Below are positions 678 to 48,050 of a stretch of DNA of 64,000 nucleotides, in pieces. The DNA is from Peptostreptococcaceae bacterium (GTDB lineage: Bacteria; Bacillota; Clostridia; Peptostreptococcales; Acidaminobacteraceae): contig JAMOQG010000019.1 in NCBI GenBank assembly GCA_027064135.1, positions 96,571-160,570 on the forward strand, read 5' to 3'. Both the position numbers and the translations under genes were made by a program. The notes below the pieces were generated by a model, which had not been told where the DNA came from, did no database searches, and saw only the letters and a program-made list of their open reading frames with translations. Position 1 is the stretch's first letter. Every line of letters begins with the position of its first letter.

Positions 678-728
678 AAAAAGATTGACAATGTTACGAA
701 AATGTAATATTATGAATTTTAATAAAAA

Positions 729-974
729 GCGATGAGAAAAAGAGTAAGTTTAATTATTTAATTAAGCGAGTCGGTGATGGTGGAAGTCCGATATTAAATA
801 TTAAATTGAAAAACCTTTTTGAGCTATTAACCGAAATCGTAAGAGAGTAGGCTTAATCGGGACTGACCGTTATATCAGTAGAGTATCGATGTTTTCTGTA
901 CTTGATAAATAACCAAGGTGGTATAGCAAAGTTAAGTCTTTTGTCCTTTATTTAGGATAAGAGGCTTTTTTTAT
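729..974 (+). promoter_or_regulatory. T-box leader upstream of asnA
   Basis: GGTGatGGTGGAAGTCC-like stem I segment, GAAaaACCttttTGAG specifier-loop-like segment, AAGGTGGtatagC T-box-like motif (912-925), followed by a terminator and asnA. Confidence 0.8.
934..974 (+). terminator. T-box-linked intrinsic terminator
   Basis: AAGTCTTTTGTCCT-ttattt-AGGATAAGAGGCTT followed by T-run. Confidence 0.8.
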
Positions 975-27747: not shown

Positions 27748-27821
27748 GCGGGTGTAGCTCAGTGGTAGAGCCTCGGCCTTCCAAGCCGATTGCGAGGGTC
27801 CGATTCCCTTCACCCGCTCCA
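27748..27821 (+). tRNA. tRNA-Gly (TCC)
   Basis: Cloverleaf with anticodon loop CTTCCAA, encoded CCA; T-loop reads TCCGATT. Confidence 0.93.
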
Positions 27822-27827
27822 ATATAC

Positions 27828-27904
27828 GCGTTCATAGCTCAGCTGGATAGAGCATCGGCCTTCTAAGCCGAGGGTCAGGGGTTCGAATCCCTTTGGACGT
27901 ACCA
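27828..27904 (+). tRNA. tRNA-Arg (TCT), copy 1
   Basis: Cloverleaf, anticodon loop CTTCTAA, encoded CCA. Confidence 0.95.
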
Positions 27905-27907
27905 TAT

Positions 27908-27984
27908 GGCGGTTGTAGTCAAGTGGTTAAGACACAGGATTGTGACTCCTGCATGCGTGGGTTCGACCCCCACCAGCCGCCCCA
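27908..27984 (+). tRNA. tRNA-His (GTG), copy 1
   Basis: Cloverleaf with encoded G-1:C73 pair, anticodon GTG, CCA. Confidence 0.95.
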
Positions 27985-27997
27985 TTTATAATTTCTT

Positions 27998-28143
27998 TAG
28001 AAATGACCCATTAGCTCAGTTGGTATAAGTAGAGAACACAAATCTATGATTTGTAGTGAATCACTTAGTTAAACCCAGACATTATGATAATGGAAGCACT
28101 AAGAAATATTGTTACTAGAAATGACCCATTAGCTCAGTTGGTA
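27998..28143 (+). repeat. 28-bp direct repeat of the tRNA-Lys 5' end (27998-28025 and 28116-28143)
   Basis: Both copies read TAGAAATGACCCATTAGCTCAGTTGGTA; the first copy is not followed by the rest of a tRNA. Confidence 0.9.
28005..28025 (+). pseudogene. truncated tRNA-Lys fragment (5' acceptor + D arm only)
   Basis: GACCCATTAGCTCAGTTGGTA then unrelated sequence. Confidence 0.8.
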
Positions 28144-28198
28144 GAGCATCTGACTTTTAATCAGGGTGTCTGGCGTTCGAGTCGCCAATGGGTCACCA
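28123..28198 (+). tRNA. tRNA-Lys (TTT)
   Basis: Cloverleaf, anticodon loop CTTTTAA, encoded CCA. Confidence 0.95.
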
Positions 28199-28205
28199 AA
28201 TATAT

Positions 28206-28282
28206 GCGTTCATAGCTCAGCTGGATAGAGCATCGGCCTTCTAAGCCGAGGGTCAGGGGTTCGAATCCCTTTGGACGTACCA
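28206..28282 (+). tRNA. tRNA-Arg (TCT), copy 2
   Basis: Identical to 27828-27904. Confidence 0.95.
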
Positions 28283-28285
28283 TAT

Positions 28286-28362
28286 GGCGGTTGTAGTCAA
28301 GTGGTTAAGACACAGGATTGTGACTCCTGCATGCGTGGGTTCGACCCCCACCAGCCGCCCCA
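28286..28362 (+). tRNA. tRNA-His (GTG), copy 2
   Basis: Identical to 27908-27984. Confidence 0.95.
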
Positions 28363-28378
28363 TTTTAAATGTAAAAAT

Positions 28379-28421
28379 ATCTCAGTTGAATTATTCTTAA
28401 AACTGAGTTTTATTTTTTTAT
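28379..28421 (+). terminator. terminator within the tRNA cluster
   Basis: CTCAGTT...AACTGAG followed by TTTTATTTTTTT. Confidence 0.7.
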
Positions 28422-28438
28422 AAATATAAAACTTATAA

Positions 28439-28515
28439 GCGCTGTTAGCTCAGCTGGATAGAGTAGGTGGCTTCGAACCACTTGGTCGGGGGTTCGAATC
28501 CCTCACAGCGTACCA
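28439..28515 (+). tRNA. tRNA-Arg (TCG)
   Basis: Cloverleaf GCGCTGT...ACAGCGT, anticodon loop CTTCGAA, encoded CCA. Confidence 0.9.
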
Positions 28516-44581: not shown

Positions 44582-45589
44582 ATGAGTCTATTAAGTTTAG
44601 CTATTGAAACTAGTTGTGATGAAACCTCAGTGGCAGTTATTAAAAATAAAAGAGAAGTAATTTCGAATGTTATATATTCACAAATTGACATTCATAAAAA
44701 ATTTGGTGGAGTTGTTCCAGAGGTCGCTTCAAGAAATCATCTTGAAAAAATTTCTCAGATAGTGGATGAAGCCCTTAATGAAGCAGAGTGTAGTCTTGAT
44801 GATTTGGATTATATTTCTGTTACAAATGGACCAGGATTAGTTGGAGCGCTATTAGTAGGGCTTTCTTATGCAAAAGCATTAAGTTTTTCTTTAGATATAC
44901 CTTTAGTTCCTGTTAATCATATTGAAGGACATATTTATGCGAATTTTATTGAACATAAAGAACTAGAACCGCCTTTTATTTCGCTTGTGGTGTCTGGTGG
45001 ACACACTCATCTTGTAGAAGTTAAAGATTATAGTGATTTTAATGTTATTGGTAGAACGCGCGATGATGCTGCGGGAGAGAGCTTTGATAAAGTAGCAAGA
45101 AAATTAGGTTTAGGGTATCCAGGTGGACCCATTATTGACGAACTTGCAAAAGAGGGAGACCCTAATGCAATCAAATTTCCTCGTTCAAAAATTGATAATT
45201 ATGATTTTAGTTTTAGTGGTTTAAAAACTGCTGTACTTAATTATATAAATATGATGCAACAGAGAAATGAAAAAATAAATGAGAAAGATGTTGCTGCAAG
45301 TTTTCAAGCAGCTGTTGTTGAAGTTTTAGTTGAAAATGCTAAAAGAGTTTGTAAAAATATGAAAATAGATAAAATTGTATTAGCTGGTGGAGTTGCTGCT
45401 AATAATGGATTAAGAGAAGCATTAGATTCTATGGGGAAAGAAGAAGGGATATCCATTTTTTATCCTTCTAAAATTTTATGTACTGATAATGCTGCAATGA
45501 TTGGATGTGCAGGAGCATATAGATATGAAAGAAAAATGTTTGGAAGTGAAGAAACAATTGCAATTCCTAATTTAGAAATTGATAGTTAA
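44582..45589 (+). CDS. tsaD: tRNA threonylcarbamoyltransferase TsaD
   Basis: [57 protein letters not shown]. Confidence 0.97.
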
Positions 45590-45590
45590 T

Positions 45591-46067
45591 GTGAACCTCA
45601 CCACCCAAATAAGCTATTTGGATGGAGCTTCTTTTCAAGACTTCGTATACATTGTAGCAGTATAGTACTAGCTTGATTTAAGTGTAGTTTGGTAATTAAG
45701 TTTTTGCACCTGTTAATACAGGCAACCCTTATACACTAGGGGTAGTCCACATACCCATTATACTCCAGAGTACTATCTCTTGCTTCGCAATTCACCTTGT
45801 CCGTTACCAATTAATTGGTTTCGGAATACATTTAGAAGCTCATGCTTTGAATATTTTACTTGGTCAAAGACTAGTGACCAAAACTTCATATATTCACTTG
45901 TCGTTTAACAAGGCGTGGATTCCTTTTAATTAGAATACACTTTAAACTTTTAACCTTGTTAAGGATATTATATCACATGTTCTTCTTTTGAACAAGTGTT
46001 TATTGATGAAAAACCGTCTAAATTCATCTCCACCCAATGCATAGCTTCGATGGAGTGTTCTTTAGAC
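45591..46067 (-). mobile_element. ORF-less IS200/IS605-like element (PATE-like) with omegaRNA-like structured region
   Basis: Similar hairpins in the same orientation at both ends (CCACCCAAATAagcTATTTGGATGG at 45601-45625; CTCCACCCAATGCATAGCTTCGATGGAG at 46028-46056); minus-strand promoter-like segment with inverted repeat; hairpin-rich minus-strand sequence; no TnpA/TnpB ORF. Confidence 0.55.
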
Positions 46068-46202
46068 AATTAATAAATTTAATACTACATATAAAAATAG
46101 GTAGGTGTAGTTATATTTTTGTTAAAGCATATAGTGACAATGATTTATTAATGTTTAGGAATATATAATTAACGCTTTGGAAATTAATTGAAAGGAAAAA
46201 TT

Positions 46203-48050
46203 ATGAAAAAAAATACAAATAGTATAACGATATTTGATTATAAATCTCAACATATTAAAAAAGATAGAAGTGATTTGATAGAATCTTCAAAAATTTTCAT
46301 GGATTATATATTTCAGTTTATTACCAAGAAGAATTTCATTATAATTTTAACTGATGCTGATGCAAATGTTATTCATATAGTTGGTGGTGAGTATTTAACT
46401 AAAAAATTTAAAAAAGATTATAATTTCGGATTAGGAAATCAATTTTCAAAAAAATTTATAGGTGAAACTGCAATAAATTTATCATTATCTTCAAAAAAAC
46501 CTGTGAAATTTTGTGGTGAAGAACATGAAAATGCTGACCATCACGAATTGTCATGTTATAGTGCACCAATTTTAATTAATGGTGAAATACTAGGAGCATT
46601 GTGTATTACAGAACGGAATAAAGAATTTAATAAAAATGCACTAGGTATGGTTATCGCTTCCGCTAAAGGAATAGAAAATCAAATCTATAATAAAAGGCGT
46701 GCTGATAAAATTGCAGAGCAATCAAAATATCAAAATGCTATTGTAGAAAATATTAAAGAAGCATTTTTAACGATAGATAATAAAGGTGTTTTAACATATA
46801 TGAATCAGAAGGCTGCAGAAATGTTAGCTTTTGATATAGAAGAAAGTGTTGGAAAAAGCATTAGTGAATTAGTTCCATTTAAACCAATAATTCTTGAGGT
46901 TTTAGAAACAGGGAAAGGATATGTAGATAGAGAATATGTATTAACTAATAATGTGGGTAAAAAATTACATTTGTTTAAAACTGCCATTCCAATTAGAGAT
47001 AAAAATGGTAATTTAACGGGTGTAATAGATATTTTTAGAGAAATAGGAGATATTAAAAAGATTGTAAATAAGATGATTGGAGCAAAAGCCAGTTTTGAAT
47101 TTGATGATATAATTGGCGAAACGCCAGCATTTAGAAAATGCATAGAGAAAGCAAAAAAAGCTGCCAGAAGTTCATCAAATATTTTAATACAAGGTGAATC
47201 TGGCACAGGAAAAGAACTTTTTGCGCAATCAATTCACAATTATAGTACAAGAAGGAATAAACCATTTGTTGCGATTAATTGTGCTGCTATTCCAAGAGAA
47301 TTAATTGAGAGCGAATTATTTGGGTATGCAAAAGGTTCGTTTACTGGTGGAATGAAAGGTGGACGACCTGGCAAATTTGAATTAGCTGACGGCGGAACTA
47401 TTTTTTTAGATGAAATTGGTGATATGCCAATAGATGTTCAAGCCAAATTATTAAGAGTGCTTCAGGATAAAAAAGTTATGAGAGTTGGCGGTGATAGTAT
47501 ATTTAATGTAAATGTTAGAATTATTGCTGCTACAAATAAGAATCTTTATGAAGAAGCAAAAAATAATAATTTCAGATGGGATATTTATTATAGGTTAAAT
47601 GTTTTGGGAATTAATATTCCGGCATTAAATGAAAGGAAAGAAGATATACCACTAATAGTAAATAAATTAGTTTCAAAAATTAATAAACGATTAGGAACCG
47701 ATATTGAGGGTATGAATAATGAAGTAATTGATATTTTAGAGAAACATTCGTGGAAAGGAAATGTTAGAGAACTTGAAAATGTGGTAGAGCGTATGATGAA
47801 TATATGTACGAATGATAGAATTGGTTTAGAACATTTACCTGATGAATATATGGAAATAGAACCGAAAATAGAACCGAAAATAGCGGAAATAGAAAATTAT
47901 AAAGTTAGAACTTTTGAAGAGGCCGAAAAAGAAATTATAAGTAATGCAATTGAATATTTTAAAGGAAATATTGCAAAAACGTCAAGGAGTTTAAAAATAA
48001 GTAGGAATACACTATATAATAAAATGAAAAAATATAAAATAAACATGTAA
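46203..48050 (+). CDS. sigma-54-dependent transcriptional activator (GAF-PAS-AAA+-Fis HTH, AcoR-like)
   Basis: GESGTGKELFAQSIHNYS, ESELFGYAKGSFTGGMKGG, FLDEIGDMPIDVQAKLLRVLQ, C-terminal HTH NIAKTSRSLKISRNTLYNKMKKY. Confidence 0.93.
   Translation: MKKNTNSITIFDYKSQHIKKDRSDLIESSKIFMDYIFQFITKKNFIIILTDADANVIHIVGGEYLTKKFKKDYNFGLGNQFSKKFIGETAINLSLSSKKPVKFCGEEHENADHHELSCYSAPILINGEILGALCITERNKEFNKNALGMVIASAKGIENQIYNKRRADKIAEQSKYQNAIVENIKEAFLTIDNKGVLTYMNQKAAEMLAFDIEESVGKSISELVPFKPIILEVLETGKGYVDREYVLTNNVGKKLHLFKTAIPIRDKNGNLTGVIDIFREIGDIKKIVNKMIGAKASFEFDDIIGETPAFRKCIEKAKKAARSSSNILIQGESGTGKELFAQSIHNYSTRRNKPFVAINCAAIPRELIESELFGYAKGSFTGGMKGGRPGKFELADGGTIFLDEIGDMPIDVQAKLLRVLQDKKVMRVGGDSIFNVNVRIIAATNKNLYEEAKNNNFRWDIYYRLNVLGINIPALNERKEDIPLIVNKLVSKINKRLGTDIEGMNNEVIDILEKHSWKGNVRELENVVERMMNICTNDRIGLEHLPDEYMEIEPKIEPKIAEIENYKVRTFEEAEKEIISNAIEYFKGNIAKTSRSLKISRNTLYNKMKKYKINM

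What the first reader, a model, noticed from the sequence alone, without database searches (positions are those of the whole stretch)
45591..46067. ORF-less IS200/IS605-type element with an omegaRNA-like structured minus strand
Both boundaries carry similar hairpins in the same orientation (CCACCC...GGATGG; CCACCC...CGATGGAG), the arrangement expected for IS200/IS605 ends rather than classical inverted repeats. Read on the minus strand it contains a promoter-like segment (CACTTGTTC-aaaagaa-GAACATGTG then GATATAAT). A hairpin-rich part (ACCCCTagtgtataAGGGTtGCCTGTattaACAGGTGC) and a pairing ATAGTACT/AGTACTAT follow before the terminal hairpin. No TnpA or TnpB coding remains. Inference: a PATE-like non-autonomous element possibly still producing a TnpB guide-type RNA, or the remnant of an IStron.
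Basis: partly seen in the sequence, partly recalled or inferred. Interest (0 to 1): 0.65.

Follow-up and report, generated by a model that had tools for sequence, protein, structure and literature searches.

The report
Gene-less transposon carrying a guide-RNA scaffold
A 482-base piece of mobile DNA in a clostridial genome has lost both of its genes but keeps the ends needed to move and the folded scaffold of a guide RNA for the nuclease TnpB, so it may make guide RNA for nucleases encoded by other elements; it is a well-preserved example of a known class, not a new system.

Summary
The finding is real. Window 45591-46072 (minus strand) is a non-autonomous IS200/IS605 element (PATE). It has two same-orientation subterminal hairpins, sits 3' of a TTTAT target, makes no target duplication, and occurs as 2 copies in this genome and 4 in its sister (Clostridiaceae bacterium HSG29). 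One sister copy has a clean empty site in the window's genome. Its ends match a full tnpA+tnpB IS605 in the same genome, and it still holds codons from the ends of both genes.

Its last 166 nt are a TnpB guide-RNA (omegaRNA/reRNA) scaffold. A covariance model finds the same RNA in other families of the order, at the 3' end of tnpB in 15 of 17 non-PATE hits, with compensatory changes in 5 of 6 pairs of one helix. IStron is rejected. The ATAGTACT/AGTACTAT pairing comes from a later repeat insertion.

All five full copies share a perfect -10 box followed by a strongly folded ~170-nt leader, so the element looks like a stand-alone guide-RNA gene. That RNA is made and used by TnpB in trans is inferred, not shown; the one matching tnpB found in this genome is frameshifted. 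New member of a known kind; moderate interest.

The parts
45591..46072 (-). Whole element (PATE, 482 bp), 5' end (LE) at 46072, 3' end (RE) at 45591
   Evidence: Conserved limits in five full copies with unrelated flanks; clean empty site for a sister copy
46073..46077 (-). TTTAT target/TAM, 5' of LE (host side)
   Evidence: TTTAT precedes LE in all five full copies and in the autonomous IS605 of C132
46028..46055 (-). LE subterminal hairpin
   Evidence: Sequence; same place and near-identical flanks in the autonomous IS605
46009..46044 (+). Remnant of the tnpA 3' end (KNRLNSSPP), overlapping the LE hairpin
   Evidence: tblastn of the C132 TnpA, 8 of 9 residues, E 0.004 in a search of two copies
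45967..45995 (-). Promoter-like TTGTTC-17-TGaTATAAT
   Evidence: TATAAT invariant in five copies, spacer 16-17; extended TG kept in 4 of 5; not found by the generic scan
45757..45965 (-). Structured leader of three main hairpins between promoter and scaffold, starting at the likely transcript start; origin mostly unknown
   Evidence: Folding z-scores -3.4, -3.9, -3.9 in three copies with the same three hairpins; one G-C to A-U double change
45762..45800 (-). Inserted unit of a dispersed 40-bp tandem repeat
   Evidence: Absent from the sister copies; arrays of the same unit at G000:C109 and G001:C249
45721..45833 (-). Remnant of the tnpB 3' end (KCIPKP ... DNGYVDYP*CIRVA), interrupted by the inserted repeat
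   Evidence: tblastn E 9e-5 on sister copy L010 and 0.003 on the window copy, in a search of two copies; DNA alignment above 500 of 500 shuffles
45591..45756 (-). omegaRNA/reRNA scaffold including the RE
   Evidence: Model R1 and covariation; tnpB-linked homologues
45597..45627 (-). RE subterminal hairpin
   Evidence: Compensatory changes between copies and the autonomous element
45575..45590 (-). Position the guide would take (first 16 nt past RE: ATTAACTATCAATTTC, antisense to the tsaD end)
   Evidence: Inference from the reRNA layout of ISDra2 (PMC8612924)

Best explanation
A homogeneous PATE: an internally deleted, decayed derivative of a local IS605 (tnpA and tnpB divergent) that keeps LE, RE and the complete guide-RNA scaffold. 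Shown: TnpA-type ends, TTTAT target, no duplication, spread to several sites, and a scaffold homologous to the RNA at the 3' end of tnpB with its helices kept by compensatory changes. Inferred: TnpA from an autonomous copy moves it in trans as single-stranded DNA (about 0.85). The minus-strand promoter makes an RNA that runs through the scaffold into the host flank, whose first ~16-20 nt become the guide (about 0.6). TnpB in trans, from a related element, uses it to cut the empty donor site TTTAT+flank left after excision, so the copy is restored by repair (about 0.35-0.4).
For: A second copy at 92% in this genome and four (three full, one cut by a contig end) in the sister. All full copies lie 3' of TTTAT and end GGTTCAC. 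The C170 copy has a contiguous empty site in the window's genome, 120 bp aligned with no gap or duplication. The two G000 copies share a repeat insertion absent from the sister copies, so the element moved after the split. IS605 with a complete Y1 TnpA (E 2.8e-40) and a TnpB in the same genome with matching LE and RE. Codon remnants of both genes. Scaffold found in 10 of 395 order genomes; 15 of 17 non-PATE hits abut the tnpB C-terminus. On the MAFFT alignment, which was not fitted to a structure, 8 pairs change on both sides against 3.3 in shuffles, 0 of 500 reaching it, and 5 of 6 pairs of helix 2 covary.
Against: No expression data. The tnpB of the C132 element is frameshifted, the sister's is cut by a contig end, and no TnpA was found in the sister's 86%-complete genome. 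The scaffold as a whole is not significantly slower-evolving than the rest among copies (9/166 against 21/277 variable sites, p 0.44); only its core is (1/109 against 29/337, p 0.003), a segment chosen after looking. The scaffold's folding energy alone is unremarkable (z -1.8). The -35 box is poor. At the tsaD site only one flank of the sister's empty site is homologous.
Confidence: 0.85

Rival explanations
1. A PATE whose scaffold is only leftover sequence: it moves by TnpA, and the RNA region survives because RE and its neighbourhood were not deleted, with no RNA function.
For: Copies within the genus are recent (94-99% alike), so conservation has had little time to be tested; the scaffold as a whole is not slower than the rest; the only complete-length tnpB of the family in this genome is frameshifted.
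Against: The core has 1 variable site in 109 while the rest has 29 in 337; RE stem changes in the C7 copy are compensated; the stem after the core has changed completely from the autonomous element yet still folds; all copies share a -10 box and a folded leader upstream. These also fit the RE hairpin's role as transposase DNA site.
Confidence: 0.4
2. Remnant of an IStron, that is, a minimal element with a group I intron that splices from transcripts.
For: Group A IStrons also insert after TTTAT (PMC4227781) and occur in clostridia; the leader is strongly folded.
Against: No Rfam intron match even at E<=1; 3' end TTCAC, not TCAG; the autonomous relative has tnpA running into LE, leaving no room for an intron; the window copy is intergenic.
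Confidence: 0.03
3. A fixed cis-regulatory RNA of tsaD or the downstream regulator.
For: Lies directly after the tsaD stop codon and is structured.
Against: Absent after tsaD in the sister; copies lie at unrelated sites.
Confidence: 0.01

Closest known systems
Homogeneous PATEs of Haloquadratum walsbyi (PMC3119063)
   Same: No coding gene, near-terminal palindromes like those of IS605 elements, no target duplication, several copies above 90% alike; some derive from divergent tnpA/tnpB elements with only the C-terminal ends of both genes left.
   Different: Archaeal; described before guide RNAs were known, so no scaffold was examined; sequences unrelated as far as this was looked at.
PATE-like element of Halanaerobium hydrogeniformans (PMC7290912)
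   Same: LE hairpin + last 58 nt of tnpB + full 160-nt RE, the same plan as here.
   Different: Single copy, 271 nt, no leader or promoter reported; here multi-copy with ~250 nt between LE and the scaffold.
ISDra2 reRNA (PMC8612924)
   Same: Guide RNA of ~150 nt made of the tnpB 3' end plus RE plus ~16 nt of flank; the layout here is the same.
   Different: ISDra2 encodes TnpA and TnpB; here no protein is encoded and transcription would need a promoter of its own.
Autonomous IS605 at G000:C132:439-2391 and tnpB-linked scaffolds in the order (this work)
   Same: LE, RE, TTTAT target and scaffold.
   Different: They keep tnpA and tnpB (intact or broken); the PATE keeps only codon remnants.
Group A IStrons, CdISt1 type (PMC4227781)
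   Same: IS605-type ends and TTTAT-type target.
   Different: They carry a group I intron and end in TCAG; neither is present here.

Membership tests
PATE / non-autonomous IS200/IS605 element | No intact transposase gene | tested here: met
   No gene-sized ORF in 45591-46072; only codon remnants
PATE / non-autonomous IS200/IS605 element | Near-terminal palindromes like those of an IS605 element | tested here: met
   LE and RE hairpins match the C132 IS605
PATE / non-autonomous IS200/IS605 element | Fixed short target 5' of LE and no target duplication | tested here: met
   TTTAT in all full copies; clean empty site for the C170 copy
PATE / non-autonomous IS200/IS605 element | Dispersed copies at unrelated sites | tested here: met
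   2 + 4 copies
PATE / non-autonomous IS200/IS605 element | Mobilised in trans by TnpA | not testable with these tools
   A complete TnpA with matching ends is present in the genome, but movement needs an assay
TnpB guide RNA (omegaRNA/reRNA) | Homologous to the RNA at the tnpB 3' end + RE, overlapping the tnpB stop | tested here: met
   15 of 17 non-PATE hits abut tnpB
TnpB guide RNA (omegaRNA/reRNA) | Conserved secondary structure | tested here: met
TnpB guide RNA (omegaRNA/reRNA) | Expressed, bound by TnpB, guide from the flank | not testable with these tools
   No transcriptome or protein assay
IStron | Group I intron | tested here: not met
   Rfam scans
IStron | 3' end TCAG (group A) | tested here: not met
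   Ends GGTTCAC; rule from PMC4227781

The most novel reading that the evidence does not exclude
The element is a selected, self-contained guide-RNA gene: its own promoter and a stable folded leader drive a guide RNA that hijacks TnpB of other elements, so a gene-less element gains TnpB-dependent retention in trans.
Probability: 0.3. Interest if true: 0.65.

Novelty: new member of a known kind. Interest (0 to 1): 0.42.

Why it matters
TnpB is thought to keep IS605 elements in place by cutting the empty site after excision. Whether gene-less derivatives can use a TnpB in trans decides whether they are passive passengers or RNA-level parasites. This family has a conserved promoter-like box, a covarying scaffold, several recent copies, a complete TnpA and an empty site in a sister genome, so the question can be tested with one element and one tnpB.

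Tried and rejected
IStron or group I intron: no Rfam match and wrong 3' end. Cis-regulatory RNA of tsaD: absent in the sister. ATAGTACT/AGTACTAT helix: due to an inserted repeat. A search for the PATE interior in the autonomous IS605: no better than shuffles apart from the last ~70 nt. Scaffold folding energy as evidence: not significant (z -1.8). Faster or slower evolution of the whole scaffold: not significant. Viral, phage and plasmid collections: no copy. Empty site for the C7 copy in the sister: no homologous locus found; for L014 and L015: not clean. Papers on non-autonomous elements with guide RNA: none found in the held library beyond the PATE papers; two papers on TnpB selfish spread and IStron guide RNAs that I recall by DOI are not held, so whether they describe scaffold-bearing PATEs was not checked.

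Full report
What was checked. The window belongs to a draft clostridial genome (G000, 158 contigs). The only other genome of its genus held is G001, whose contigs are those of Clostridiaceae bacterium HSG29. The region lies between tsaD (44582-45589) and a sigma-54-dependent regulator (46188-48050).

It is a mobile element. The 482 bp from 45591 to 46072 recur at G000:C7 (92% over the matched stretch) and at four places in G001, one of them cut by a contig end. Flanks differ; the conserved part starts at GTGAACC and ends at AATT(A/T), followed on the + strand by ATAAA, that is TTTAT 5' of the left end on the minus strand. The flanks of the C170 copy are contiguous in G000:C53: 120 bp align across the junction without gap or duplication. 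This sets the limits and shows IS200/IS605-type insertion. After tsaD the sister has no element; there only the tsaD side is homologous, so that site is a weaker empty site. The two G000 copies share an inserted repeat (complete in one, partly deleted in the other) that the G001 copies lack, so they stem from one copy that moved after the two lineages split.

Its parent type is in the same genome. G000:C132:439-2391 is an IS605 with divergent tnpA (145 aa, Y1_Tnp E 2.8e-40) and tnpB (OrfB_IS605, Cas12f1-like_TNB) whose left and right ends match the PATE. The PATE keeps codons of the tnpA end (KNRLNSSPP) and of the tnpB end (DNGYVDYP*CIRVA, with a stop inside), and KCIPKP further up; the ~70 nt before the scaffold align with the tnpB end better than any of 500 shuffles, while the rest of the interior does not align better than shuffles. 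So it is an internally deleted, decayed tnpA/tnpB element.

The 3' part is the TnpB guide-RNA scaffold. Minus-strand 45756-45591 aligns with the RNA region that begins inside the tnpB 3' end in C132, in G001:C148 and in more distant genomes; an invariant core (ATAAGGGTTGCCTG, AAACTTAA) is shared. On that MAFFT alignment, 33 pairs are formed in 97% of cells; 8 pairs change on both sides (3.3 in shuffles, 0 of 500 reach it), and sliding the partners by one column drops pairing to 40-50%. Helix 2 (45737-45732 with 45686-45681) appears in three sequence versions, with 5 of 6 pairs compensated. A covariance model built from it finds 23 matches in 10 of 395 genomes of the order; of the 17 that are not PATE copies, 15 lie at the C-terminal end of a tnpB reading frame. 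This is the layout of the reRNA of ISDra2: tnpB 3' end, right end, then ~16 nt of flank as guide (PMC8612924). The enlarged alignment gives the same picture, but it was fitted to the model and counts for less.

Promoter and leader. All five full copies have TATAAT preceded at 16-17 nt by TTGTTC; four keep the extended TG. The consensus scan does not flag it because the -35 is poor. Between it and the scaffold lies a stretch of 170-209 nt that folds into the same three main hairpins in three copies examined (z -3.4, -3.9, -3.9). One stem shows a G-C to A-U double change in the C7 copy. The opposite strand is also stable (z -2.9), as expected for palindromic DNA, so RNA function is not proven. 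The origin of the upstream part of this leader is unexplained.

How it most likely works. Shown: ends, target, spread, scaffold homology and structure. Inferred: TnpA in trans moves it; a minus-strand RNA carries the scaffold into the host flank; TnpB in trans may use it to cut the empty donor site. Against: the C132 tnpB is frameshifted, the sister's matching tnpB is cut by a contig end, and there is no expression evidence. Among copies, the core varies at 1 of 109 sites against 29 of 337 elsewhere (p 0.003), but the segment was chosen after seeing the data and the scaffold as a whole shows no slower change (p 0.44).

Comparison with the known. PATEs are described in Haloquadratum (PMC3119063), including derivatives with only the C-terminal remnants of both genes, and a PATE-like element in Halanaerobium keeps the last 58 nt of tnpB and the full right end (PMC7290912). 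The plan here is the same. What is added is the demonstration that the retained part is a covarying guide-RNA scaffold, plus a shared promoter-like box and folded leader in a multi-copy family. From memory, work on TnpB in Geobacillus and on IStrons in clostridia discusses gene-less derivatives; those papers are not in the library and were not checked. I therefore file it as a new member of a known kind.

Noticed in passing
G000:C132 (L007:573-1885), G072 (L061), G154, G080, G198, G046, G174, G001:C83: The TnpB proteins of this group lack the canonical RuvC-II glutamate (Gly, or another residue in its place) and the zinc-finger cysteines, but all keep a Glu just before [AS]YTS, close to the alternative glutamate position described for Fanzor-like TnpBs (PMC10711439); read from one alignment.
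   Followed up: partly
window 45762-45800; L009:2209-2276; L018:139-258: A dispersed ~40-bp tandem repeat (TTACAAGGTGAATTGCGAAAGCAAGAGAGAGTAGCCTGG), found in short arrays in both genomes, has put one unit into the G000 PATE copies.
   Followed up: partly
window 45757-45965 (-), L010:1667-1837, L002:1670-1860: Strongly folded three-hairpin leader of mostly unknown origin, with a higher folding z-score than the scaffold itself; one compensated pair between copies.
   Followed up: partly
L065:1501-1632 (-) and L055:16-140 (+) (G250, another family): Scaffold-like RNAs with no tnpB beside them (L065 lies between a tilS-like and an ftsH-like gene; L055 begins near a contig end): possible independent PATEs with a guide-RNA scaffold.
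   Followed up: partly
L054 and L068 (G080): Two copies of an IS605 with the same large deletions in tnpA and tnpB (TnpB residues 253-413 left) that keep the scaffold: an independent deletion derivative that seems to have multiplied.
   Followed up: partly
L007:145-393 and 2351-2740: The autonomous IS605 of C132 appears to interrupt a MATE-type transporter gene on the same strand as tnpB (reading of the two ORFs, not profile-tested).
   Followed up: no
L010 around 1501-1943: The sister PATE copy at C170 lies inside an open reading frame that is uninterrupted in the window's genome.
   Followed up: partly
L014 around 1500: The sister PATE copy at C132 lies inside an ORF that looks Fic/Doc-like (motif HPFVDG just before the element).
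   Followed up: no
window 723-951 and 27748-28512: A T-box leader and a cluster of seven tRNA genes; ordinary.
   Followed up: no
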